Below are positions 25,013 through 37,467 of a DNA stretch of 64,000 nucleotides, one piece after another. Every line of letters starts with the position of its first letter. Within the stretch, counting starts at the first letter, position 1. Made by a program: the position numbers and the translations under genes. Below the pieces are notes generated by a model, which was not told the DNA's origin, did no database searches, and saw only the letters and a list, made by a program, of their open reading frames with translations. This DNA comes from Pseudovibrio ascidiaceicola. GTDB taxonomy: Bacteria > Pseudomonadota > Alphaproteobacteria > Rhizobiales > Stappiaceae. Location of the stretch: assembly GCF_900114245.1 (NCBI RefSeq), contig NZ_FOSK01000001.1, forward strand, positions 682,001 to 746,000. Reading direction: 5' to 3'.

Positions 25013-27240
<2,228 letters not shown>

Positions 27241-27465: not shown

Positions 27466-28011
27466 TCAGGCGGCAATCGCCTGCATTGACGTCCATCTGT
27501 CCCGGGTCAGCGTAACTGTGGTGTAATCCATTTCGAGGTCACCACGTGCGCGGTTCTTCTCTTTGGTCTCGCCAGTCACCTCAAACCCGTTCTTCTGAAG
27601 CACATTCAGAGACTTTGGATTGATGGTGAACAGGCCAGTGTTCATCGCAGCCGCATTCAGCCGGTTGAATACATAATCGCAAACCAGATTGGTTGCTTCA
27701 CTGGCATAACCTTTACCCCATTGGGATTTAGCTAGCCAGTAACCGAGGTGAGGTGTTGTCGAGACATTGCGGATGCCGATAACGCCGACAAGGCCTTCGC
27801 CATTGTCGATCACCCAGTTGATCTCTTCGCAGTGAGGTGTCGTGCGGCAATGGTCGAACCACCAGTCACCATCATCCTTTGTATAAGGATGCGGAACGAC
27901 AGTCAGCATCTTGCTCACATCGAAATCGTTCAAAGACGCGTTATGAATATCAAAATCACCTTCGCGAAAATCGCGTAGGATCAAGCGCTCGGATTGTAAC
28001 TCCGGGAACAT
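27466..28011 (-). CDS. GNAT N-acetyltransferase, RimJ/RimL type (cluster member 9)
   Basis: 181 aa, a single GNAT domain. N-terminal strand FPELQSERLILRDFREGDFD, then VSKMLTVVPHPYTKDDGDWWFDH, acetyl-CoA loop GYWLAKSQWGKGYASEATNLV, and C-terminal SLNVLQKNGFEVTGET. The family acetylates protein N-termini, amino sugars or antibiotics; substrate here unknown. It is separated from the seven-gene array by cspA and the TetR-OsmC-CPBP cassette. It is closest in sequence feel to the 31573-32118 copy (both have VSKMLTVVP(H/Y)PYTK). Directly upstream of obgE, probably the ancestral position of such a gene. Confidence 0.88.
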   Translation of the reverse strand: MFPELQSERLILRDFREGDFDIHNASLNDFDVSKMLTVVPHPYTKDDGDWWFDHCRTTPHCEEINWVIDNGEGLVGVIGIRNVSTTPHLGYWLAKSQWGKGYASEATNLVCDYVFNRLNAAAMNTGLFTINPKSLNVLQKNGFEVTGETKEKNRARGDLEMDYTTVTLTRDRWTSMQAIAA

Positions 28012-28868
28012 GACAATCTCTTCTTATTCTTCTTGGAGCGCTTGGCTTATTGTCGCTGGCGCTCTTTCTCTTAAGTACACGAAGATAGCGTCAAACCCGT
28101 CGAACCATATGCTCGCAACGCGCCGGTGCTATCCAACCCTTGCTTTTGGTTCCTGAGATCTCAAGTGAAACTCTGCCACGAGTGCTGGGTGCAATCACAA
28201 AGGGACGAGGGAGCTAAAGGCTGTTGCCGCAACCTTGCTCAAAGACCCTATCCTGCCATCTGCTGAAAGTCGCGGAACGCATAAACAGTCGCGCCAGCCA
28301 GATCAGAAGAGCAGGACCCATCTTTCATTGCCCGATAAACACACACATATCGGAGAATCAAAGGTGATCGACGCCTGCACCTTTATTCACAGGGGGAACA
28401 AAGTAAGCAGGCAACAGCATCTTGGAGGTTTCAAAATCCGAGAGGAACTTAAAAGCTTGGGGGCGGTCACTATCTCGGACCACTCCCCATTGCAAGCGCT
28501 TAGAGCATATCCGTGGAATTTTTTTCACATAGTGAGGAATATTCGCACGAATATCGACAAATCCTGCAATGCAACCGCTAGGTGGCCTAACATCGGGTTT
28601 TCCCTCAATTTTTATGGGTTTTGTGAAAACATCAGGGAATAAGTTAGGATTTGACTCAGTAAAAACACAGAGAATTTAAAAAAATTGGTTCTACAGGCAT
28701 CAAATGGAAAGCTGGATCTTTACTTATCAGTCAATATGTGGAATGCCGTCTCTACGTTAAGACTGTCGACCCTGTCTCCTTTTTAGGCGTCAGTGCACTC
28801 GATTTCGCCCTGACGCAACAAATCGCCATCTGCATGTCGCAGCGGCACACTAACTAGGAGATATCACG
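28012..28868. other. 857-bp region without a recognisable gene
   Basis: Lies between a minus-strand GNAT gene and cspA, so it holds two divergent promoters. A 135-codon open frame at 28235-28642 has atypical composition, no family pattern and no good ribosome-binding site; I do not call it. A candidate -35 (TTGACT, 28651-28656) with an AT-rich stretch 18 bp later could start a cspA transcript with a 5' leader of nearly 200 nt. A structured small RNA cannot be excluded. Confidence 0.5.
28787..28816 (+). promoter_or_regulatory. Hairpin in the cspA 5' leader
   Basis: GCGTCAG (28787-28793) pairs with CTGACGC (28810-28816), ending 52 bp before the cspA start. Cold-shock genes commonly have long, temperature-responsive structured leaders; this element would lie in it. 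Confidence 0.45.
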
Positions 28869-29075
28869 ATGGCTAAAGGCACCGTGAAATGGTTCAACAG
28901 CACTAAAGGTTTCGGTTTTATTGCACCTGAAGATGGAAGCAAAGACGTATTTGTTCACATCTCTGCAGTAGAGCGCTCCGGTCTGTCTACTCTGGCTGAT
29001 GGCCAGGACGTAACTTACGAACTGGAAGCTGGTCGTGATGGCCGTCAGAGCGCTGTAAACCTCGAAACCGTATAA
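28869..29075 (+). CDS. cspA: Cold-shock protein, CspA family
   Basis: 68-aa single-stranded nucleic-acid-binding OB-fold protein and RNA chaperone. RNP1 motif KGFGFIAPE and RNP2 VFVHISAVE are intact, preceded by [13 protein letters not shown] 28869 follows TAGGAGATATCACG (strong ribosome-binding site). Monocistronic, with its own strong terminator. Alphaproteobacteria carry several csp paralogues, so the symbol denotes the family. Confidence 0.95.
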
Positions 29076-29092
29076 TTCGAGCTGTTTCAGTG

Positions 29093-29124
29093 AAAAAGAG
29101 CGCAGCAATGCGCTCTTTTTTTTT
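29093..29124 (+). terminator. Intrinsic terminator of cspA
   Basis: AAAAAGAGCGCA / TGCGCTCTTTTT, 12-bp stem with GCAA loop, followed by further T residues. Very strong. Confidence 0.93.
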
Positions 29125-29320
29125 GTCTGGAGTTTGGCCCAGACACAGATAAACCAACAATGAGAGAGCCAACGGGCCACCATTCAGCCAAAACGCCCCC
29201 CTTACAAAATACCCTCTCCCAAAACCAGCACTCACATCATGCTTTGCTGTGATGTCAGCTGACCGTTTTCACATTCCATTCCCTTGCAATCTTGTTTCTC
29301 CTCACCAAACTTACTAGAGC

Positions 29321-29349
29321 TTAGTGTAAGATACGGTATCGTACCCACG
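29321..29349. promoter_or_regulatory. Operator O1 upstream of tetR (imperfect copy)
   Basis: TTAGTGTAAGATAC-G-GTATCGTACCCACG has the same 14+1+14 layout and core GATAC-N-GTATCGTAC as the perfect palindrome at 30062-30090. It ends 19 bp before the TetR start, so autorepression is likely. Confidence 0.7.
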
Positions 29350-29368
29350 TGAGAGACGGAAAACCTGT

Positions 29369-30001
29369 ATGGAATCAGAGAAAAAGGTATCGCGCGGCGA
29401 AAAGCGGAAACAAGAGCTTTTGGAAATCGCAGCTGACGCCATCATTGAGCTTGGCTATGCCAACACCTCAATGGATGAGATCGTCAGACGCGCCCGTGCC
29501 TCCAAAACCACAGTCTACAGGCACTTCAAAAATAAAGAAGCAATGCTGGCGGAGATTGTCAGCAACCTGTCTGAGGGGCCAGTCCTCTCCATCAAGCCTC
29601 TCGACTCAAATGCAGATGGCGGGTCCCGTCAGGAACTCGAAGAGATTCTCTTTATCTTCGGCAAGGCTGTTCTAACCCTCATCTATGATGACAGAACTCT
29701 GGGCCTTTGGCGCATGTTGATAGGCGAGGGCAGTCGCGCTCCGCATATTACCAAATCATTTTTCCAGCTTGGTCCCAAACGGGCAACTTCCAGCATTGCA
29801 CAGCAGCTTCAGCTTGCGAGCGACCTTGGCATCGTTGCCATTGAACATCCTGAAAACGCAGCGGCCATATTCATGGGTATGTTGCGAGAGGACACTCATC
29901 TCGCTCTTCTGTTGGGCGTTCAAACCGCGCCGAATGAACAGGAAGTCTCAGAGCATGTCCGCCAGTGTGTGCGTGATTTCATGAAGGCATATGGGGTCTG
30001 A
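29369..30001 (+). CDS. TetR family transcriptional regulator
   Basis: 210 aa. HTH at about residues 12-58: RKQELLEIAADAIIELGYANTSMDEIVRRARASKTTVYRHFKNKEAML. The C-terminal domain resembles the AefR-type group (LYDDRTLGLWRMLIGEGSRAPHITKSFFQLGP), only loosely. It probably binds both O1 and the perfect palindrome ahead of the OsmC gene, coupling its own level to that of OsmC and perhaps the CPBP gene. Inducer unknown; the OsmC target suggests organic peroxides or other electrophiles. Confidence 0.9.
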   Translation: MESEKKVSRGEKRKQELLEIAADAIIELGYANTSMDEIVRRARASKTTVYRHFKNKEAMLAEIVSNLSEGPVLSIKPLDSNADGGSRQELEEILFIFGKAVLTLIYDDRTLGLWRMLIGEGSRAPHITKSFFQLGPKRATSSIAQQLQLASDLGIVAIEHPENAAAIFMGMLREDTHLALLLGVQTAPNEQEVSEHVRQCVRDFMKAYGV

Positions 30002-30061
30002 CACCAACCAGCGGGGACCCATAGAAAACTGCCCAGCTTGACGAAGGCGATTCATATCTGC

Positions 30062-30090
30062 TAAGTGTACGATACAGTATCGTACACTTA
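30062..30090. promoter_or_regulatory. Operator O2: perfect 29-bp palindrome ahead of the osmC-like gene
   Basis: TAAGTGTACGATAC-A-GTATCGTACACTTA: 14-bp arms with no mismatch around one base, 11 bp upstream of the OsmC start. It abuts the ribosome-binding site GGAGG (30092-30096), so a bound repressor would block initiation directly. The core repeats at 29321-29349. Confidence 0.85.
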
Positions 30091-30101
30091 TGGAGGTAGA
30101 G

Positions 30102-30689
30102 ATGCTTGACAATAACACTGTGACACACCCCATCGTGACCCGGGCAGCAGCCATGCCAACGCCCCAGCACATCAGCTTAAACAAAATCAAAAAGTCAAAA
30201 GACGGTATGGAGCTTGAGGTTGATTTCATCGCTGAGCTCACCGGCGAGGGCTTGGTCAAGACCGGCGTGGTTCAGCCCAATGTTCCCGGCTTTGGTGCTT
30301 TTGAAGTGCTCTGCGATGAAGGCTCATCCATCGGCGGAACAGATACAGCTCCGGCGCCTCTGTCCTACCTGGCTGCTGGCATAGGCTTCTGCCTGCTGAC
30401 GCATGTGCATGGGTTGGCCCAGTCTCGCAGGCTGAACATCTCCTCCATCAAACTGGAGCAGAAGATGAAGTTCCAATCCAGAATTCCGGGAATGACCGCA
30501 GAACAAGGCACGGAAATGCTCGGTGTTTCAAAAGGCGTCGAGACAGTCATCATCATCGAATCGCAAGAGGATCCTTCTCTGATCGCATCTTTGGTGGAGG
30601 CAAGTGAGAAAGCCTGCATGGCGCTTCAAACCGTCGTAAATGCGATCCCGGCATCGACCACAATCATCAACAACGGCCAGAAACTCTGA
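30102..30689 (+). CDS. OsmC family protein
   Basis: 195 aa from ATG 30102, six bases after GGAGG. The ATG at 30090 lies in the operator and is rejected. OsmC/Ohr fold with ISLNKIKKSKDGMELEVDF, GTDTAPAPLSYLAAGIGFCLLTHVHGLAQ (helix with the reactive-Cys position, C at about residue 101) and a C-terminal helix EASEKACMALQTVVNA. Such proteins reduce organic hydroperoxides using two cysteines. Here the partner Cys would be in SEKAC rather than in the usual place, so the activity is uncertain. Located between tetR and the CPBP gene. Confidence 0.82.
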   Translation: MLDNNTVTHPIVTRAAAMPTPQHISLNKIKKSKDGMELEVDFIAELTGEGLVKTGVVQPNVPGFGAFEVLCDEGSSIGGTDTAPAPLSYLAAGIGFCLLTHVHGLAQSRRLNISSIKLEQKMKFQSRIPGMTAEQGTEMLGVSKGVETVIIIESQEDPSLIASLVEASEKACMALQTVVNAIPASTTIINNGQKL

Positions 30690-30798
30690 GCCGGAATTGA
30701 TGCGCAGGGCAGCCTCTCAAGCGAAACAGTTTAAGAAGTTGCCCTCTTTTCCAATTCACCTTCTCAACAATGACTCCGAGAAGGGCGGAGGAAATACA

Positions 30799-31524
30799 AT
30801 GACATCCTCAACCCAAAACCACTATTTCCCCATCACATTCCGCAATCAGCTTATGGCAACAATTGTCTGGGCTCAGGTTTTTGTTCTCTACTGCATCGCG
30901 CTTCTGATCTTCACCAAACAGAATGAAAGCCAGATCTTCTGGGCAGACCCGTTTATCAAGATTGTACCAATCTACGTCTCAACCTGGCTCATTATTCTCA
31001 CCTCTTTGCTTTTAGGGTGGTCCTGCTTCATCAAGCTCGGTTGGGCAGGATTGATAAAACACACACCAGGTTTGCAGATCGTGAGCGGTGTAAGCACAGC
31101 AATCATAATAACCTGCATCATCTGGGCGTTCTTTGGGAGTGATCTGCCTGACTTTGTCCCGGCAGAAGAAAGCTCACGGCCCGGCTATCTATTTGGTATG
31201 GTCGCTGGATATGGTGAAGAGCTCGTATTCCGTATGATACTGAGCGCACTGGTTTTCTTCGCAATGTTCAAGCTGCTGTCAGGCGTTGAGTACAGATATC
31301 GCGTGTTTTGGTCTGCTGGCACTGCAATCCTCATAGCAGCACTTGCTTTTGTCTTTCTGCATGAGCTTGGAGAAGTCGATAGCGTCCTGCTGTGGAACTT
31401 GGTCGCCACGCGCATTCTCGTTCCCGGCATCATAATGGGGAGCTTGTTTTTTCTGGTCGGTCCGGGCTTTCTCATCTTCATGCACAGCGCAATGCACATC
31501 ATGATACCGCTGCTGTTCGACTGA
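30799..31524 (+). CDS. CPBP-family intramembrane protease-like protein
   Basis: 241 aa from ATG 30799, well spaced from GGAGG; the longer frame from 30640 overlaps the osmC end. About 6-7 hydrophobic segments. CPBP/Abi motifs are present: EELVFR (EExxxR form, in GYGEELVFRMILSALVF), FVFLH (FxxxH), and a C-terminal MHSAMHIM with two His. The family contains CAAX-prenyl endopeptidases and bacterial self-immunity proteins. It may be co-transcribed with osmC (109-bp gap). The partner substrate is unknown. Confidence 0.75.
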   Translation: MTSSTQNHYFPITFRNQLMATIVWAQVFVLYCIALLIFTKQNESQIFWADPFIKIVPIYVSTWLIILTSLLLGWSCFIKLGWAGLIKHTPGLQIVSGVSTAIIITCIIWAFFGSDLPDFVPAEESSRPGYLFGMVAGYGEELVFRMILSALVFFAMFKLLSGVEYRYRVFWSAGTAILIAALAFVFLHELGEVDSVLLWNLVATRILVPGIIMGSLFFLVGPGFLIFMHSAMHIMIPLLFD

Positions 31525-31532
31525 TCTCAAAA

Positions 31533-31562
31533 CTTGTCGCGCGCCCAACGGCACGCGACAAG
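31533..31562. terminator. Bidirectional terminator between CPBP gene and GNAT array
   Basis: CTTGTCGCG-C-GCC / GGC-A-CGCGACAAG with loop CAAC; a 12-bp stem with one mismatch between convergent genes. Confidence 0.75.
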
Positions 31563-31572
31563 CTAATCATGC

Positions 31573-32118
31573 TTAAACCGTCACCGCCCGCATGGCTTCC
31601 CACAAATGCCGGGTGAGCTCCACGTTGATGAGAGTGACTTCTTCTCCGCGAGCGCGACTTTTTTCTGGTTGCGAGCCGATCATCTGAAAACCGTTCTTCG
31701 CCAGCACATTCAGGGACCCGTCATTTTCTTCAAACGCGCCGGAGGTCACTTTGGTGGAGCCCAGTACCTCAAAGCAGTAATTGACCACCGCCTCAGTTGC
31801 TTCACTCATATAACCTTTGCCCCAGAATGGTTGCCCCAACCAGTAGCCAATGCGGGGGAAGCCATCTTCTGGGATGCGTATTCCAATGACGCCTGAGAAA
31901 CCGTGTTCGGATTCAATAACCCAGTTGGTCGCTTCATTTTGAGGCGTTTCACGGATGTGGTTCAACCACCATTCCCCATCTGCTTTTGTGTAAGGGTAGG
32001 GCACCACAGTCAGCATCTTGCTGACTTCAAAATTGCTGATGTACTCACAGATCGGCTCCAGATCATCCTGCTGAAACTGGCGGAGTGTCAGGCGATTTGT
32101 TTTGAGTTCAGGAAACAT
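31573..32118 (-). CDS. GNAT N-acetyltransferase, RimJ/RimL type (member 8)
   Basis: 181 aa from ATG 32118 (MFPELKTNRLTLRQFQQDDLEP); the in-frame ATGs at 32121 and 32220 are less fitting, the latter running into the previous gene. GNAT motifs: VSKMLTVVPYPYTKADGEWWLNH, acetyl-CoA loop GYWLGQPFWGKGYMSEATEAV, and SLNVLAKNGFQMIGSQPEKSRARGEE. Last gene of the array, 74 bp from member 7. Substrate unknown. Closely resembles member 9. Confidence 0.88.
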   Translation of the reverse strand: MFPELKTNRLTLRQFQQDDLEPICEYISNFEVSKMLTVVPYPYTKADGEWWLNHIRETPQNEATNWVIESEHGFSGVIGIRIPEDGFPRIGYWLGQPFWGKGYMSEATEAVVNYCFEVLGSTKVTSGAFEENDGSLNVLAKNGFQMIGSQPEKSRARGEEVTLINVELTRHLWEAMRAVTV

Positions 32119-32192
32119 CATTAGTCCAACTTGTTGCATTTTGGAGTACTCGGTCAGTGCACCGCAAGTACTCTGTAATTCCATAATGGTCG

Positions 32193-32738
32193 TTAGGCAG
32201 GGGCATGCCGTGCAGCCCACTGTTCCCGCGTTAAACTAAGAGAAATATTCGGCAGCTTCTCTTCTGGCCGGGAACGCGGAGTTGAAAAGCCTCTTCCAAT
32301 CTCCTGAAAGCCCAGTTTGCTCAGAACACGCAAGCTTCCGGGGTTCTCTTCAAGTGCAGAGGTATAAATCGTGGGCAGGCCAAGTACCTCAAATCCATAT
32401 GTAGTAATGGCCTGAGCAGCCTCACTCATATAGCCTTTGCCCCAAAGATGCTCAGCAAGCCAGTACCCAAGAATTGGCTTGCCGCTTTGAAGCTTCATCA
32501 GAGTGATCGAGCCGGAAAAGCCTGCAGGCCCCTCAATTACCCAGGCGATCTTTTCAGAAAGTGGCGTGTTCAGGCAGTAGTTGATCCACCATTCTCCGTC
32601 TGCTTTGGAATAAGGGTAAGGCACCTCAGAGAGTGTTTTGCTTACTGCGAAGTTATTGGTGTGCATGCAAAGCGGCTCCAGATCCGTGTGCTTGAACTGG
32701 CGCAGTATCAACCTGTCTGTTTTTAGGTCAGGAAACAT
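32193..32738 (-). CDS. GNAT N-acetyltransferase, RimJ/RimL type (member 7)
   Basis: 181 aa. FPDLKTDRLILRQFKHTDLEPL, VSKTLSEVPYPYSKADGEWWINY, loop GYWLAEHLWGKGYMSEAAQAI, C-terminal SLRVLSKLGFQEIGRGFSTPRSRPEE. The start is 9 bp from the end of member 6. It is the member most like number 8, as expected for a recent neighbouring duplication. Confidence 0.88.
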   Translation of the reverse strand: MFPDLKTDRLILRQFKHTDLEPLCMHTNNFAVSKTLSEVPYPYSKADGEWWINYCLNTPLSEKIAWVIEGPAGFSGSITLMKLQSGKPILGYWLAEHLWGKGYMSEAAQAITTYGFEVLGLPTIYTSALEENPGSLRVLSKLGFQEIGRGFSTPRSRPEEKLPNISLSLTREQWAARHAPA

Positions 32739-32747
32739 CTTGAATAC

Positions 32748-33314
32748 TCACGAAATCACGTCTGAATTAGTCAGTCGAAGAAAGTCATTGCCGGTCACTT
32801 GCAGCTGGATCTCATCGAGCTCCACATTGCCCCGCGCGCGGCAGACGTGCTTGGCCTCACCAGTAATCTTGAAACCCAACTTGGTCAGCACTCGCAAAGA
32901 GGCAGGGTTTTCTTTAAAAACCCCCGTGCGCACGACAAACAGCTCTCGGTCCTCAAAAAGGTAGGTAAGGACAGCACGCAAAGCCTCGCTCATCAGGCCT
33001 TTGCCCCAATACTCCTGCCCAAGCCAATAGCCAACGCTCGCAGCACCTTGCAGTTCCTTAGCTTTAAGCCCGCCAATAAATTGTCCATCAAGCTCAATCG
33101 CCCAGGTCACATTCTCAGCTGTGTTGTTTGCAAGAGCCTGCTCAATATAATCCCGCCCGTCTGTTTCCAAAAACGGATGCGGTTGACTGCTCAGAGATTT
33201 AGAGACCTCAAAATCCCCTAGGTACGCACAAAGCTTCTCCAAGTCGGTTTCCCGCATCTCCCGCAAAACAAGCCGCTCGCTGCGAAGAGCGGGGAAGGTG
33301 TTTAGTGTTGTCAT
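32748..33314 (-). CDS. GNAT N-acetyltransferase, RimJ/RimL type (member 6)
   Basis: 188 aa from ATG 33314 (MTTLNTFPALRSERLVLREM); TTG 33323 is an alternative that would overlap the previous gene by 4 bp. Loop GYWLGQEYWGKGLMSEALRAV, LFVVRTGVFKENPASLRVLTKLGFKITGE. The segment HPFLETDGRDYIEQAL replaces the WW pair of members 7-9, so its substrate pocket probably differs. Confidence 0.87.
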   Translation of the reverse strand: MTTLNTFPALRSERLVLREMRETDLEKLCAYLGDFEVSKSLSSQPHPFLETDGRDYIEQALANNTAENVTWAIELDGQFIGGLKAKELQGAASVGYWLGQEYWGKGLMSEALRAVLTYLFEDRELFVVRTGVFKENPASLRVLTKLGFKITGEAKHVCRARGNVELDEIQLQVTGNDFLRLTNSDVIS

Positions 33315-33319
33315 GGCGC

Positions 33320-33868
33320 TCAACCTTCCGCTTCTGCAAGGTCCACAAAATCGGCCTTAGGCAATGCAAGCCGAACATGTGGAACCATGGTATCACCGCG
33401 GCCTTTGGAGGGGATAGTTTCTTCACCAACTTTGCTGAAGCCCATCTTATCCAACAGGTGAGAGGAGGCGGGATTGTCTGCAAACACGCCAGCCTCAAAG
33501 CTCCTGATGGAGTGCTGTTCAAACCCGAAACGCAAAACTGCGCGAAGCGCTTCGCTCATGTAACCACGCCCCCAATAAGGCTCACCCATCCAATAACCGG
33601 TCCAGCCAGTTACATCCTCAAACTTTGCCCAGATACAGCCAATTAGACCAGTCCCGTCGTCAATGGCCCACAACACCACACTCTCAGGATCATTGGTCTT
33701 GCCGCGATGGATGTAGAACCTGCCAGTCTCTTCCGTGAACGGATGCGGCATGCCCGAAAGCATGCTCGCAATTGCATAAGAGTTTGCCAGCTGGACAAGG
33801 CGCTCCAGATCACCGTCTTCAATCATGCGCAATCGAAGGCGGTCTGTTTTCAGCTCTGGAAAAACCAT
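33320..33868 (-). CDS. GNAT N-acetyltransferase, RimJ/RimL type (member 5)
   Basis: 182 aa. FPELKTDRLRLRMIEDGDLERL, ASMLSGMPHPFTEETGRFYIHR, loop GYWMGEPYWGRGYMSEALRAV, SSHLLDKMGFSKVGEETIPSKGRGD. One base separates its start from the stop of member 4. Confidence 0.87.
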   Translation of the reverse strand: MVFPELKTDRLRLRMIEDGDLERLVQLANSYAIASMLSGMPHPFTEETGRFYIHRGKTNDPESVVLWAIDDGTGLIGCIWAKFEDVTGWTGYWMGEPYWGRGYMSEALRAVLRFGFEQHSIRSFEAGVFADNPASSHLLDKMGFSKVGEETIPSKGRGDTMVPHVRLALPKADFVDLAEAEG

Positions 33869-33869
33869 C

Positions 33870-34430
33870 CTATCTTATCCCCGCCACCGCAAACTGTGAT
33901 TGCTCCGCAGACTGCGCCAGCTTGAGCTCGAAATTCTGGGTCTCTATTTCATCGGCCTCTCTGGAAACGCAGGAGTGCGTGCAGACAGAGGTTGGAACGA
34001 AGCCATTCTTCATAAGAACGCGGAATGACGCAGGATTCTCCAAAAAAACGCACGCATCAACGTTTTCAACGCAACGCTCATTTTGTAGATAGTTTACAAC
34101 GGCTTGCACAGCTTCACTCATATAACCCCGCCGCCAGTAGTATTTTCCAAGCGCATAGCCCATAGAAGCGGATTTACCGATCCTGTGCGCACCAATGGAC
34201 CCGATGAAGCCGGTACCATTGTCAATTGCCCACACCACATCCGTGCTCAGATCATTAGAATGGTTACGAGTGATAAACTCATGCGCCCACTCATCAGTGA
34301 TCGGATGCGGAAAACTGGCAGTCATCCGCGCCACATCAAAGTCAGAGAACAGGAACCGCAGCCGCGGATAGTCGTCCGGCTGAAGTGCTCTTAAAATCAA
34401 CCGGTTGGTCTGTAATTCCGGAAAGATCAT
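33870..34430 (-). CDS. GNAT N-acetyltransferase, RimJ/RimL type (member 4)
   Basis: 186 aa. FPELQTNRLILRALQPDDYPRL, ARMTASFPHPITDEWAHEFITR, loop GYALGKYYWRRGYMSEAVQAV, SFRVLMKNGFVPTSVCTHSCVSREADE. Overlaps member 3 by 4 bp. The cysteine-containing tail (CTHSC) is absent from the other members. Confidence 0.86.
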   Translation of the reverse strand: MIFPELQTNRLILRALQPDDYPRLRFLFSDFDVARMTASFPHPITDEWAHEFITRNHSNDLSTDVVWAIDNGTGFIGSIGAHRIGKSASMGYALGKYYWRRGYMSEAVQAVVNYLQNERCVENVDACVFLENPASFRVLMKNGFVPTSVCTHSCVSREADEIETQNFELKLAQSAEQSQFAVAGIR

Positions 34431-34993
34431 TGCGCTACCTCCTGCGCTCTGGCTTGTTGTGCGCCGATAAAATCGAGGGGGGAAATAAGGAACTCTTCTG
34501 TCGGATAATTTCCGGCGAGACGAGCTCGACTTCGCCCTTCATTCTGTCCAGTATGAACAAACCCAAGCTTTCGGATCAGCGCCTGAGAGCCTGCGTTGTC
34601 GCTAAACGCATCGGCAAAGATAGAAGGCAGCTCACGCTCCAGCAGTAAGTAGCGAAGAACCTCGCTAACCGCTTCATACATAATGCCTTTTTTCCAATGA
34701 TCTTCCGCAAGCCAAAAGGCGAGCTCTGGCTTTCTGGAAAGATGACCAGCACCAACGCCGCCAACCACTTCCCCCTGAAGCTCGACAGCCCAGTTCACTC
34801 CATGGCCAAGGTCGCCGGGCATAAACCTTTGCAGAAAGACCTCAGCATCCGCTTTGGTATAAGGATGCGGAGCACTCGCCAGCATACGCGTAACATTCTG
34901 ATTTTGCAGCAATTCCACAATGCGCGGCGCATCCGTCTCTCTCCATTCCCGAAGTGTCAGGCTGGCTGTTCTCAAACGAGGAAAAGTGGTCAT
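34427..34993 (-). CDS. GNAT N-acetyltransferase, RimJ/RimL type (member 3)
   Basis: 188 aa. FPRLRTASLTLREWRETDAPRI, TRMLASAPHPYTKADAEVFLQRF, loop AFWLAEDHWKKGIMYEAVSEV and SQALIRKLGFVHTGQNEGRSRARL. The acetyl-CoA loop is less canonical (KKGIM in place of GKGYM). Overlaps both neighbours by 4 bp, so translation is coupled. Confidence 0.85.
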   Translation of the reverse strand: MTTFPRLRTASLTLREWRETDAPRIVELLQNQNVTRMLASAPHPYTKADAEVFLQRFMPGDLGHGVNWAVELQGEVVGGVGAGHLSRKPELAFWLAEDHWKKGIMYEAVSEVLRYLLLERELPSIFADAFSDNAGSQALIRKLGFVHTGQNEGRSRARLAGNYPTEEFLISPLDFIGAQQARAQEVAQ

Positions 34994-35580
34994 AGTATTG
35001 CTCCCATCATCACATGCGCATCACCATGCAGTGCCTCAAACCGATCCCGCGGCAGATGCATGATGATATTCTCAATGTCTTGTTGCAAAGGTTTAGAGTA
35101 CCGAAGGCAAACACCAGCAGGCTCAAAGCCTAGCTTTTTCAATACCTTCTGTGAAGGATAGTTCGTCGCAAATACACGAGCAGCGAAGGTGTCACATGCA
35201 GCGCGCGCAAAGCCCCAATGCAGCGCAGCAACACATGCTTCAGTGATATAGCCTTGGCCATGTGCAGCTTCGGAAAGCCAATAGCCAATGGTTGGCAGTT
35301 CCGGGAACTCTTTGAGATCACCGGGTTTTTGGACTTCAACGCCACCTATAAGCTGTCCGTTACAGTCGATGGCAAACGGAAATGAGTCCGTTTTAGCATT
35401 TGCAAGGCGCGCTTGTTCCACAAAGGCTTCGGCTTCCATCATGATTGGAGGCCACGTTAACCCGGTGAGCCAGCGTGCTATTTCATAGTTAGAAGGTCCG
35501 ATCTCCCAAAAGCGAGGGAGATCGTCAGATTGGAACGGGCGCAGTTGCAGCCTTTGGGTATCTATAGTTGTAGTGAGCAT
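34990..35580 (-). CDS. GNAT N-acetyltransferase, RimJ/RimL type (member 2)
   Basis: 196 aa, probable first gene of the seven-gene run. IDTQRLQLRPFQSDDLPRF, LTGLTWPPIMMEAEAFVEQA, loop GYWLSEAAHGQGYITEACVAAL, SQKVLKKLGFEPAGVCLRYSKPLQQD. It is the most divergent of the run in the substrate segment. A 233-bp gap before it holds a perfect hairpin (35774-35800) and its likely promoter. Confidence 0.85.
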   Translation of the reverse strand: MLTTTIDTQRLQLRPFQSDDLPRFWEIGPSNYEIARWLTGLTWPPIMMEAEAFVEQARLANAKTDSFPFAIDCNGQLIGGVEVQKPGDLKEFPELPTIGYWLSEAAHGQGYITEACVAALHWGFARAACDTFAARVFATNYPSQKVLKKLGFEPAGVCLRYSKPLQQDIENIIMHLPRDRFEALHGDAHVMMGAIL

Positions 35581-35773
35581 TGTAAAAGGCCTTGTAAATC
35601 AAACTCATATTTCTCTAATCGTTCGTTGGAGTAGGTAAGTGAGGGTAAAACGCAGCATGCCCCGATGATCCGGATTGCAGACAGAGCGACTGCATCAGGA
35701 TCACATTAAAGCCCGCTGGTTTTATGTGGTTGAGGGTAAGCCGTTACAGCCAAACAACAATCACGCTGCCGAA

Positions 35774-35800
35774 AGCAGGTTGCTGTCATTGCAACCTGCT
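35774..35800 (-). terminator. Perfect hairpin after GNAT member 1
   Basis: AGCAGGTTGC (35774-35783) / GCAACCTGCT (35791-35800), 10 bp, loop of 7. It is 13 bp past the stop of the 35814-36419 gene. On the minus strand it is followed by TTTC. Likely terminator between member 1 and the seven-gene array. Confidence 0.65.
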
Positions 35801-35813
35801 GATCTGGCATCAC

Positions 35814-36419
35814 TTAACCAGCAGAGCCCCATCGCGTATTCGCGATCCATTGGCTGCGGGTCAGTGTAAAGCGTGTGGCATCCACCACGGCCATAGCGCC
35901 GAGAGAATGCAGCTTTGTCGTTCCGTCCTGCTTAAAGCCGCACTTGGTCAGCACGCGGTGCGAGGCAGGATTGCTCACGCGGCAAGAAGCGGAGAGCTCC
36001 TTAACACCGTTAGCAAACGCAAATTCGATAACAGACTGAACAGCTTCTGTCGCATATCCCTGGTTCCAGAATGGTTCGCCTACCCAATAACCCAGGTGCA
36101 CAGCACCAAAGTCTTCGGCAAGCGGATTGAACCCGATAGCGCCAATAATACGGCCAGTGTTCTTCATGCGGATCGCGAATGTCGCTTGAGACGGCAACTG
36201 CACATCACACCGTTTCACGAGCGCTTTAGCGTCTTCATACGTGAATGGATGCGGCATGTTCGTCAGCTTCTCAGCGATCCGACGGTTGTTGGCTAAAAAC
36301 AGGATGTCAGCCAAATCATCCTTGCGCGCTCGGTCGATGACGAGACGCGCGGTGTCCTGCGGCGACCCGGCCGCAACGCAACTGCTTTCTTCTGGGATTT
36401 CTTCGTATTCAACTACCAT
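35814..36419 (-). CDS. GNAT N-acetyltransferase, RimJ/RimL type (member 1)
   Basis: 201 aa with about 25 residues before the domain (MVVEYEEIPEESSCVAAGSPQ), which the others lack. ARLVIDRARKDDLADI, NMPHPFTYEDAKALVKR, loop GYWVGEPFWNQGYATEAVQSV, SHRVLTKCGFKQDGTTKLHSLGA. It sits directly after rpmA, across a terminator-like hairpin. This is the place where many alphaproteobacteria have a single acetyltransferase gene, so it may be the older copy. Confidence 0.86.
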   Translation of the reverse strand: MVVEYEEIPEESSCVAAGSPQDTARLVIDRARKDDLADILFLANNRRIAEKLTNMPHPFTYEDAKALVKRCDVQLPSQATFAIRMKNTGRIIGAIGFNPLAEDFGAVHLGYWVGEPFWNQGYATEAVQSVIEFAFANGVKELSASCRVSNPASHRVLTKCGFKQDGTTKLHSLGAMAVVDATRFTLTRSQWIANTRWGSAG

Positions 36420-36575: not shown

Positions 36576-36845
36576 TTACTCGGCGGCGAGTGCCACCGGC
36601 ATCACATTAATAAATGTTCGGCCATTGCGTTTTTCTTCGAATGCAACTTTGCCTTCGACGGTCGCAAAAATGGTATGGTCTTTACCAATGCCAACACCTG
36701 CGCCTGGGTGCCACTTAGTGCCACGCTGACGTGCAATGATGTTGCCAGGAATCACGGCTTCGCCGCCGAACTTCTTGATACCAAGGCGACGACCAGCTGA
36801 GTCGCGACCGTTGCGGGATGAACCGCCAGCTTTTTTATGAGCCAT
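36576..36845 (-). CDS. rpmA: 50S ribosomal protein L27
   Basis: 89 aa. The N-terminus [24 protein letters not shown] reaches the peptidyl-transferase centre in the ribosome. [35 protein letters not shown] is the L27 signature. Second gene of rplU-rpmA, 46 bp after rplU. No N-terminal processing extension of the Firmicutes type. Confidence 0.98.
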
Positions 36846-36891: not shown

Positions 36892-37467
36892 TTACTTCGC
36901 TGCGAGTTCCTTAGCCTGTGCAACCCAGTTATCACGTTCGAAGCGGCCTTTAGTGCCAGTTTCTTCTTCAACGCGGGCGATGTCTTCAGCAGAAAGAGCT
37001 GCGATCTGTGCATAGGTAGAAATACCTGCAGCGTTCAGCTTTTTCTCAATTGCTGGGCCAAGACCCTGCAATTTTTTCAGATCGTCGGAGCCTTCAGCAG
37101 CTGGTGCAGCGGCAGCTTTCTTAGGAGCAGCGGCTTTTTTAGCTGGCTTAGCACCACTGGTCAGGATGTCGGTGATTTTCACAGTAGTGAAAGCCTGACG
37201 ATGACCATTACGACGACGGGAGTTCTGACGACGACGTTTTTTGAAGATGATGATCTTACGATCACGACCCTGCTCAACAACCTCAGCTACAACAGAAGCG
37301 CCTTCAACGGTTGGTGCACCGATGGTGGTTTCAGCATCTGAACCAACCATGAGAACTTCGTCAAAAGTTACTGTTTCACCAGCTTCGGCAGAAACTTTTT
37401 CGATCTTCAGAAGATCGTCAGCAGCAACAGTGTACTGTTTACCGCCTGTTTTGATGACTGCGAACAT
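36892..37467 (-). CDS. rplU: 50S ribosomal protein L21 with C-terminal helix-hairpin-helix extension
   Basis: 191 aa from ATG 37467, seven bases after AAGGA; the ATG at 37473 is too close to it. L21 proper is residues 1-102 ([38 protein letters not shown]). An Ala/Lys/Pro-rich linker follows, then a helix-hairpin-helix-like domain ([29 protein letters not shown]). This extension is known from alphaproteobacterial L21. First gene of the rplU-rpmA unit. Confidence 0.96.

What the first reader, a model, noticed from the sequence alone, without database searches (positions are those of the whole stretch)
27466..36419. Nine-member RimJ/RimL-type GNAT array wedged between rpmA and obgE
Nine related acetyltransferases (181-201 aa) lie between two ribosome-associated housekeeping genes that are normally adjacent or have one or two GNAT genes between them. 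Seven (31573-35580) form one tight unit with gaps of 1-74 bp or 4-bp overlaps. They keep the fold blocks (FPEL-x-T-x-RL at the start, GYW-x5-WGKGYMSEA for acetyl-CoA, SLRVL-x-K-x-GF at the end) but differ in the segment after the first strand. That segment is where substrate contacts are expected (WW pair in 7-9; other residues in 2-6). This looks like tandem duplication with substrate diversification. Options: N-terminal acetylation of different ribosomal proteins, detoxification of a family of amines or antibiotics, or modification of a natural product. I know of no described system of this shape; novelty is inference.
Basis: partly seen in the sequence, partly recalled or inferred. Interest (0 to 1): 0.75.

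Follow-up and report, generated by a model that had tools for sequence, protein, structure and literature searches.

The report
Diversifying acetyltransferase gene array
Next to two core ribosome-linked genes, a marine bacterium carries nine side-by-side copies of an acetyl-transferring enzyme gene that keep the same catalytic residue but differ in their likely substrate pocket; what they act on is not known.

Summary
Confirmed: nine same-strand GNAT genes (T1-T9 in transcription order) lie between rpmA and obgE of a Pseudovibrio; seven form a tight unit, and T9 lies beyond an opposite-strand insert. Each has its best own-genome match inside the array. Fifteen Pseudovibrio carry 3-11 full-length copies; 89 other linked alphaproteobacterial loci carry 0-4. 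The RimJ/RimL label fails: NCBIfam cut-offs are missed by far and the RimL/MccE catalytic Glu is absent, though the catalytic Ser is invariant. Gene-wide selection is purifying; T1 and T9 are about as constrained as obgE. A second GNAT array, between rho and mnmE, consists of PA3944 homologues and has 2-7 full copies in the nine genomes with at least seven copies of the first array, one in the other six. S5, L12 and L27 N-termini hardly vary with copy number; S18 does somewhat. Best reading: a birth-and-death array of substrate-specialised N-acetyltransferases, probably inactivating amine-bearing toxic compounds. Substrates are inferred. No structure prediction was available.

The parts
36892..37467 (-). 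rplU (L21), upstream flank, with C-terminal helix-hairpin-helix match
   Evidence: PF00829, PF14520
36576..36845 (-). rpmA (L27), upstream flank
35814..36419 (-). T1 GNAT, 201 aa; lowest mean dN of the nine; groups with the first GNAT after rpmA in other genera and families
34990..35580 (-). T2 GNAT, 196 aa
34427..34993 (-). T3 GNAT, 188 aa; 4-nt overlap with T2
33870..34430 (-). T4 GNAT, 186 aa; 4-nt overlap with T3
33320..33868 (-). T5 GNAT, 182 aa
32748..33311 (-). T6 GNAT, 187 aa from the ATG at 33311 (start chosen by me; the ORF list begins it upstream)
32193..32738 (-). T7 GNAT, 181 aa; WW pair
31573..32118 (-). T8 GNAT, 181 aa (start chosen by me; the ORF list begins it upstream); WW pair; last of the tight seven-gene unit
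29369..31524 (+). opposite-strand insert: TetR regulator 29369-30001, OsmC-related protein 30090-30689, membrane protein 30796-31524 (start chosen by me); probably not part of the system
27466..28011 (-). T9 GNAT, 181 aa; WW pair; lowest dN/dS of the nine
26143..27189 (-). obgE, downstream flank (start chosen by me)

Best explanation
A birth-and-death array of substrate-specialised acetyl-CoA-dependent N-acetyltransferases. Shown: repeated tandem duplication within the rpmA-obgE gap, most strongly in one group of Pseudovibrio; absent and broken copies in some genomes; an invariant catalytic Ser; gene-wide purifying selection; different residues, largely constant within orthologous groups, at columns matching a known enzyme's docked acceptor site. 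Inferred: each copy acetylates a different amine acceptor, probably toxic peptides or other amine-bearing compounds of the invertebrate-associated habitat, which this inactivates. T1 and perhaps T9 keep an older, more constant task. The Ser may act as nucleophile, as proposed for PA3944, because the RimL/MccE general base is missing. The parallel amplification of a PA3944-type array between rho and mnmE points the same way.
For: Paralogy. Full-length copies 3-11 in 15 Pseudovibrio against 0-4 GNATs in 89 other linked loci. Orthologous groups, gains and losses. Purifying selection with T1 and T9 like obgE. Ser invariant in the aligned orthologous groups of T1-T9 (76 proteins) and in 53 aligned proteins. 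Acceptor-site columns: six side-chain contact columns have mean mutual information 2.19 against 1.55 for all 180 columns (random sets as high: 0.004) and lower variation within groups (0.25 against 0.45 bits; random sets as low: 0.037); with two backbone contacts added 2.00 (0.023). Second array: PA3944 homologues (E 2.4e-47 for the one tested); between rho and mnmE in 17 of 17 loci read; 2-7 full copies in nine Pseudovibrio genomes, 1 in the six others and in two of other genera. PA3944 acetylates polymyxin B and colistin, with Ser148 essential (PMC8072286; passages and sections 24 and 28 seen).
Against: No substrate, expression or phenotype is known. PA3944 residue E102 is kept only in T3 of the first array, so polymyxin itself is not predicted for the others. 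The nine expanded genomes look like one group by obgE identity (90-99% against 81-90%; no species tree was made), so the co-expansion may be one or two events. The match of the two arrays is not graded: G011 and G013 have 6 copies of the first array but 1 of the second. In six genomes compared, GNATs outside the arrays also differ (12-14 against 5-8 PF13302 matches, subtraction), so a general GNAT gain is part of it. No PADLOC family matched. S18 N-termini differ between expanded and other genomes, which a Rim-like role could use. The residue mapping rests on alignment at low identity, on docking and not on a bound structure.
Confidence: 0.45

Rival explanations
1. The copies are N-terminal (or lysine) acetyltransferases for different native proteins, ribosomal ones included, as RimI/RimJ/RimL are; the locus between rpmA and obgE reflects this.
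For: Same Pfam family as RimJ/RimL (recalled) with weak hits of the RimJ and RimL models; conserved neighbours rplU, rpmA, obgE, also in a Sinorhizobium record; T1 and T9 about as constrained as obgE; S18 N-termini differ between expanded and other genomes.
Against: RimL Glu160 equivalent absent. S5 and L12 N-termini (13 Pseudovibrio genomes) and L27 (15 genomes) nearly constant while the array has 3-11 full copies. Broken and absent copies suit a dispensable role.
Confidence: 0.22
2. The copies modify small metabolites (polyamines, amino sugars, amino acids, a natural product) as part of metabolism rather than defence.
For: Spermidine acetyltransferases are among the weak profile and structure-sequence matches; GNATs with this Ser serve many amine substrates (PMC8072286 section 28).
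Against: Between rpmA and obgE the only other genes recognised are the TetR, OsmC-like and membrane-protein insert; SpeG cut-off missed (28.6 against 218 bits).
Confidence: 0.22
3. The copies are redundant products of neutral tandem duplication, kept for dosage or drifting to loss.
For: Broken copies (split frames) in G003, G005, G006 and G011; higher dN/dS in T5-T7.
Against: Gene-wide dN/dS 0.05-0.25 in all groups; invariant Ser; acceptor-site columns differ between groups and are largely constant within them.
Confidence: 0.1

Closest known systems
PA3944 of Pseudomonas aeruginosa (polymyxin-acetylating GNAT)
   Same: Ser at the S148 position and no equivalent of MccE E572. The second array (rho-mnmE) is a clear homologue: its four copies in the window's genome are 42-47% identical to PA3944, with E102 and S148 in 4 of 4.
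   Different: The nine-member array is only distantly similar (profile E 2.2e-13), keeps E102 only in T3, and has other residues at the docking contacts F89, F140, H167 (H only in T4 and T6) and H179 (H only in T5).
RimJ/RimL ribosomal-protein N-acetyltransferases
   Same: Weak profile similarity; NxxS serine kept.
   Different: Far under NCBIfam cut-offs; general-base Glu absent; many copies per genome.
MccE microcin C7 acetyltransferase
   Same: Best solved-structure match of T1 (E 2.1e-9); Ser kept; aromatic or His residues in most copies at the columns of MccE's two adenine-stacking residues.
   Different: E572 equivalent absent.
GNAT genes between rpmA and obgE in other Hyphomicrobiales
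   Same: Same locus, and same strand as obgE in all 50 loci with hits; other genera of the family carry 1-4.
   Different: Not amplified to 6-11 as in eleven of fifteen Pseudovibrio; no description found in the listings.

Membership tests
Acetyltransf_3 GNAT (PF13302) | score over Pfam gathering cut-off | tested here: met
   all nine over the cut-off; 9 of 9 matched at E <= 0.001
RimJ / RimL (NF008072, NF007539) | NCBIfam equivalog cut-off | tested here: not met
   best 36.0 of 190 and 35.3 of 184 bits among the nine
RimJ / RimL | catalytic Ser (RimL S141) | tested here: met
   Ser in 9 of 9 and invariant in 76 aligned orthologues
RimJ / RimL | general-base Glu (RimL E160) | tested here: not met
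   no Glu or Asp at Ser+19 in 114 Pseudovibrio proteins (115 examined) and 58 of 58 of other genera of the family; 1 Asp among 18 in the order (19 examined); 11 fragments left out. Position inferred from the Ser-Glu distance of 19 that follows from PMC4964394
RimJ / RimL | acetylates S5 or L12 N-terminus | not testable with these tools
   no assay
MccE | E572 general base | tested here: not met
   same position
MccE | two residues stacking on adenine (453 and F466) | tested here: inconclusive
   columns read HWYHHHYYH and LFFFYYWWW for T1-T9; PMC4964394 prints T453, while the chain shows Trp at the place that I take for 453
PA3944-like | nucleophilic Ser148 | tested here: met
   SSSSSSSSS in T1-T9; the residue, not its role
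PA3944-like | E102 specificity residue | tested here: not met
   HTESWSIRH in T1-T9: only T3; second array 4 of 4 Glu in the window's genome
Spermidine acetyltransferase SpeG (NF011709) | NCBIfam cut-off | tested here: not met
   best 28.6 of 218 bits
Known anti-phage defence protein | PADLOC model match | tested here: not met
   0 of 9 members matched at E <= 0.001
GNAT toxin of a toxin-antitoxin pair | adjacent DUF1778-type antitoxin | not tested
   no dedicated search was made

The most novel reading that the evidence does not exclude
One Pseudovibrio group evolved two independent, co-amplified acetyltransferase arsenals, one between rpmA and obgE and one between rho and mnmE. Duplicated copies are re-tooled at the acceptor site while chemistry and fold stay fixed, giving a modular, fast-turnover detoxification repertoire against host or competitor peptides and amines. 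This would be a bacterial counterpart of the detoxification-gene clusters of animals.
Probability: 0.27. Interest if true: 0.75.

Novelty: new variant of a known kind. Interest (0 to 1): 0.55.

Why it matters
GNAT substrates are hard to predict from sequence. A natural series of nine co-located paralogues with one catalytic scaffold, aligned acceptor-site differences and 3-11 copies across related genomes is a ready test system for how GNAT specificity evolves. If the detoxification reading holds, these invertebrate-associated bacteria carry a diversified amine-inactivating repertoire in plain sight beside housekeeping genes.

Tried and rejected
Deep coalescence of the interior genes: dS of T3-T8 against G002 and G004 is 0.25-0.68, above obgE, T1, T2 and T9 (0.10-0.22). 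The control is mixed: the downstream housekeeping genes and rplU are low (0.04-0.21), but the TetR and OsmC genes inside the region (0.39-0.44) and the chemotaxis gene outside it (0.40-0.42) are as high as the array. Low dS of highly constrained genes is the simpler account; recombination is not excluded.

Positive selection: gene-wide dN/dS stays under 1 in all groups. Saturated dS values were left out of the means, which inflates the ratio for T5-T7. No site-level test was run.

Hypervariable segment after the first strand: not enriched. A regional rate scan, with secondary structure assigned by eye, gave weak peaks in alpha-2 and the C-terminus only (0.04-0.05 of circular shifts).

Mobile origin: with T6 as query, phage matches under 34% identity in 8 records; plasmid matches under 60% identity in all 189 records, several of the 15 listed on chromosome-sized records. 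No sign of mobility in this test of one gene.

Terminators and promoters: 13 terminator-like sites against 11.3 expected and 3 promoter-like sites against 7.6 expected; uninformative.

Array monophyly: the quick tree puts the 12 background GNATs on one side (support only 35). In the careful tree of 44 rows one long-branched background row (bg_L098) falls inside the array with low support, and 8% of bootstrap trees separate the two groups fully. Three long-branched background rows were left out of that tree. I therefore rely on BLAST margins, not on the deep tree.

First residue mapping: PA3944 was numbered two residues off (the paper's numbers are the chain index minus two), and its columns showed no such picture. 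The corrected mapping is; a second alignment method gave the same residues.
Full report
OBSERVATION. Between rpmA (36576-36845, -) and obgE (start taken at 27189, -) the window holds nine GNAT genes, all on the - strand, 181-201 aa. I number them T1 (35814-36419) to T9 (27466-28011) in the direction of transcription. T2-T8 are separated by two 4-nt overlaps and gaps of 1, 8, 9 and 74 nt. T1 lies 233 nt upstream of T2. T9 lies beyond a + strand insert of a TetR regulator, an OsmC-related protein and a membrane protein without a Pfam or NCBIfam match. All nine are PF13302.

PARALOGY. Identity is 22-52%, highest at the T6-T9 end: T7-T8 52%, T8-T9 50%. Against 26 of the 27 PF13302 matches of the genome, 9 of 9 have their best hit in the array (72.8-193 bits) with the best outsider at 44-57 bits. 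Deep monophyly is not resolved: the careful tree needs two changes instead of one, with a long-branched outsider inside the array.

DISTRIBUTION. One search examined 61 genomes; I read the rpmA-obgE stretch of all 15 same-genus relatives, all 21 genomes of other genera of the family and 19 of 24 of the order. One search found rpmA in 119 of 121 genomes, mostly of the order; I read 40 new ones. One search found rpmA in 54 of 58 genomes of the class; I read 20. A copy counts as full-length if at least 130 profile positions are matched. Pseudovibrio, window included: 15 linked (G009 broke at a contig end). Full-length copies: G000 9, G001 4, G002 11, G003 7, G004 10, G005 9, G006 11, G007 10, G008 3, G010 11, G011 6, G012 4, G013 6, G014 4, G015 10; G003, G005, G006 and G011 hold two further pieces each. 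Other genera of the family: 1-4 hits in 21 of 21 (one with a fragment among them). Order, first sample: 17 of 19 linked, 0-4 hits (two with fragments). Order, second sample: 31 of 40 linked, with 0 in 5, 1 in 13, 2 in 11, 3 in 2. Class: 20 of 20 linked, 0 in 16, 1 in 3, 3 in 1. So 89 linked loci outside Pseudovibrio hold at most 4. In the 50 loci with hits all hits are on the obgE strand.

HISTORY. The quick tree (148 rows: 115 Pseudovibrio, 15 of five other genomes of the family, 6 of the order, 12 background) puts T1 with the first GNAT after rpmA of other genera and families (support 89-97), so T1 is the old resident; the careful tree agrees. T2 also has relatives in the family (97). T3-T9 sit in Pseudovibrio-only supported groups, but single long-branched rows of the order lie beside T3 and T4 in the careful tree, and their place is unsure. 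Within the expanded group (G000, G002-G007, G010, G015) the content differs even where obgE is 99% identical: G002 has no T7 and two copies each in the T3, T6 and T8 groups; the window has one T3 copy where G004 has two; G005 and G007 have T7 and T8 in swapped order (read).

SELECTION. Pooled dN/dS (Nei-Gojobori, 7-9 genomes per group): T1 0.09, T2 0.15, T3 0.13, T4 0.11, T5 0.17, T6 0.25, T7 0.25, T8 0.07, T9 0.05, obgE 0.05, rpmA 0.04. Mean dN: T1 0.036, T9 0.054, obgE 0.043; T2-T8 0.12-0.30. Saturated dS pairs were dropped from the dS means, so T5-T7 ratios are too high. Gene-wide selection is purifying; T1 and T9 behave like housekeeping genes. Flanking controls for dS are mixed (see Tried and rejected).

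CATALYSIS AND LABEL. Where NCBIfam RimJ, RimL and SpeG models hit the nine, they score 19-36 bits against cut-offs of 184-218. RimL uses S141 and E160, MccE S553 and E572, both 19 residues apart, as proposed general acid and base (PMC4964394, sections 10 and 17 read). The array keeps the Ser: 9 of 9, and the column is invariant in 76 orthologues. At Ser+19 there is no Glu or Asp in 114 testable Pseudovibrio proteins (115 examined, one without the motif), none in 58 of 58 of other genera of the family, and one Asp among 18 testable of 19 in the order; 11 fragments were left out. PA3944 also lacks that Glu, and its Ser148 is proposed as nucleophile (PMC8072286, passages and sections 24 and 28).

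ACCEPTOR SITE. PMC8072286 section 24 names docking contacts F44, F89, E102, F140, H167 and H179, and backbone contacts at F43, I103 and F140. Mapped by alignment, consensus residues for T1-T9 are: F44 LLLTLLLLL, F89 NQGHKKMRR, E102 HTESWSIRH, F140 SRDCGGSGG, S148 SSSSSSSSS, H167 LRGHIHSEE, H179 ANTTHENLY; a second alignment method agrees. Residues are largely constant within orthologous groups: at E102, T1 and T9 are all H, T5 all W, T8 all R, T2 and T4 have one exception each, while T3, T6 and T7 vary. Mean mutual information between group and residue is 2.19 for the six contact columns against 1.55 for 180 columns (random sets as high 0.004); with F43 and I103 added it is 2.00 (0.023). F44 itself is nearly invariant (Leu) and lowers the mean. 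Variation within groups is lower than average (0.25 against 0.45 bits). Limits: low identity to PA3944, an indel before H167, docking instead of a ligand structure, and no structure prediction available.

SECOND ARRAY. The same genome holds four tandem PF13302 genes between rho and mnmE (L054; rho and mnmE named by me from sequence). They are 42-47% identical to PA3944 (phmmer E 2.4e-47 for the one tested), with E102 and S148 kept in 4 of 4. Of 17 loci read (window genome, 14 Pseudovibrio relatives, 2 of other genera), all have such GNATs between the two flanking genes. Full copies: G000 4, G002 4, G003 2, G004 4, G005 2, G006 4, G007 2, G010 4, G015 7; 1 each in G001, G008, G011-G014, G019, G021; broken pieces in G004, G006, G015. 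The literal string EIGW around E102 is found in 34 of the 41 full copies (counted). G009, seen with five pieces on two contigs, was not read. The nine genomes with 2-7 copies are the nine with at least 7 full copies of the first array; the other six have 3-6 of the first and 1 of the second, so G011 and G013 (6 and 1) show that the match is not graded. In six genomes compared, PF13302 matches outside both arrays are 13, 14 and 12 (G000, G010, G015) against 5, 8 and 5 (G001, G008, G014) (subtraction), so the gain is not confined to the arrays. By obgE identity the expanded genomes look like one group, hence few independent events; no species tree was made.

ROLE. S5 N-termini (first 14 residues) differ by one E/D change among 13 Pseudovibrio genomes; L12 differs at residues 5 and 13; L27 is the same over 25 residues but for two single changes among 15 genomes. 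S18 is less uniform: nine expanded genomes and G009 start M(A/S)ESSSAGRR, the four others read differ from that and from each other. Growth of the array is thus not matched by new S5, L12 or L27 N-termini; S18 leaves some room for the Rim-like rival. No PADLOC match. In a Sinorhizobium meliloti record the locus reads rplU-rpmA-GNAT-GNAT-obgE-proB and a glutamate-5-semialdehyde dehydrogenase gene. A published transposon screen in that species links RimI- and RimJ/L-like genes (SMc02449, SMc00075) to sensitivity to a host antimicrobial peptide (PMC5539429, passages); I did not establish whether they lie at this locus. I take substrate-specialised N-acetyltransferases, most likely for detoxification, as the best reading at 0.45; the substrate class is inference.

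LITERATURE. Ten searches of the held open-access library: none of the titles and abstract starts listed, and no passage that I opened, describes a GNAT array between rpmA and obgE or GNAT arrays in Pseudovibrio. Several listings were capped (20 of 49, 15 of 66, 15 of 144). The main text of the genus-wide Pseudovibrio comparison PMC5959193 has no occurrence of 'acetyltransferase' or 'GNAT' (passages only).

Noticed in passing
L054 4307-6634 (same genome, contig C31, between rho and mnmE): Second tandem array of four PA3944-type GNATs, amplified in the same Pseudovibrio genomes as the first array.
   Followed up: yes
window 29369-31524 (+): TetR (AefR-like), OsmC-related (seleno)protein model match and a membrane protein with no Pfam or NCBIfam hit that looks CAAX-protease-like by eye (recalled motif), inserted between T8 and T9; the T8-T9 gap differs in length between species.
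   Followed up: partly
window 36892-37467 (-): L21 carries an alanine/lysine-rich linker and a helix-hairpin-helix match at its C-terminus.
   Followed up: no
L041, L043, L044, L049 (first array); L237, L242, L247 (second array): Broken GNAT copies, seen as split or partial reading frames, inside the arrays: signs of ongoing gene death.
   Followed up: partly
L043 and L045 (G005, G007): T7-type and T8-type copies occur in the opposite order to the other expanded genomes that have both, and T5-T7 are only 45-61% identical to the window's.
   Followed up: partly
L216 (CP090106.1): A 3.7-Mb Sinorhizobium meliloti record labelled pSymB holds rplU-rpmA-obgE-proB, so the label looks wrong or the record is a chromosome.
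   Followed up: no
G008:C1:815417-816483: A further pair of neighbouring PF13302 GNATs in a Pseudovibrio with the small arrays.
   Followed up: no
S18 gene loci L174, L177, L178, L181 against L180, L182-L189: S18 N-termini differ between Pseudovibrio with small arrays and those with large ones.
   Followed up: no
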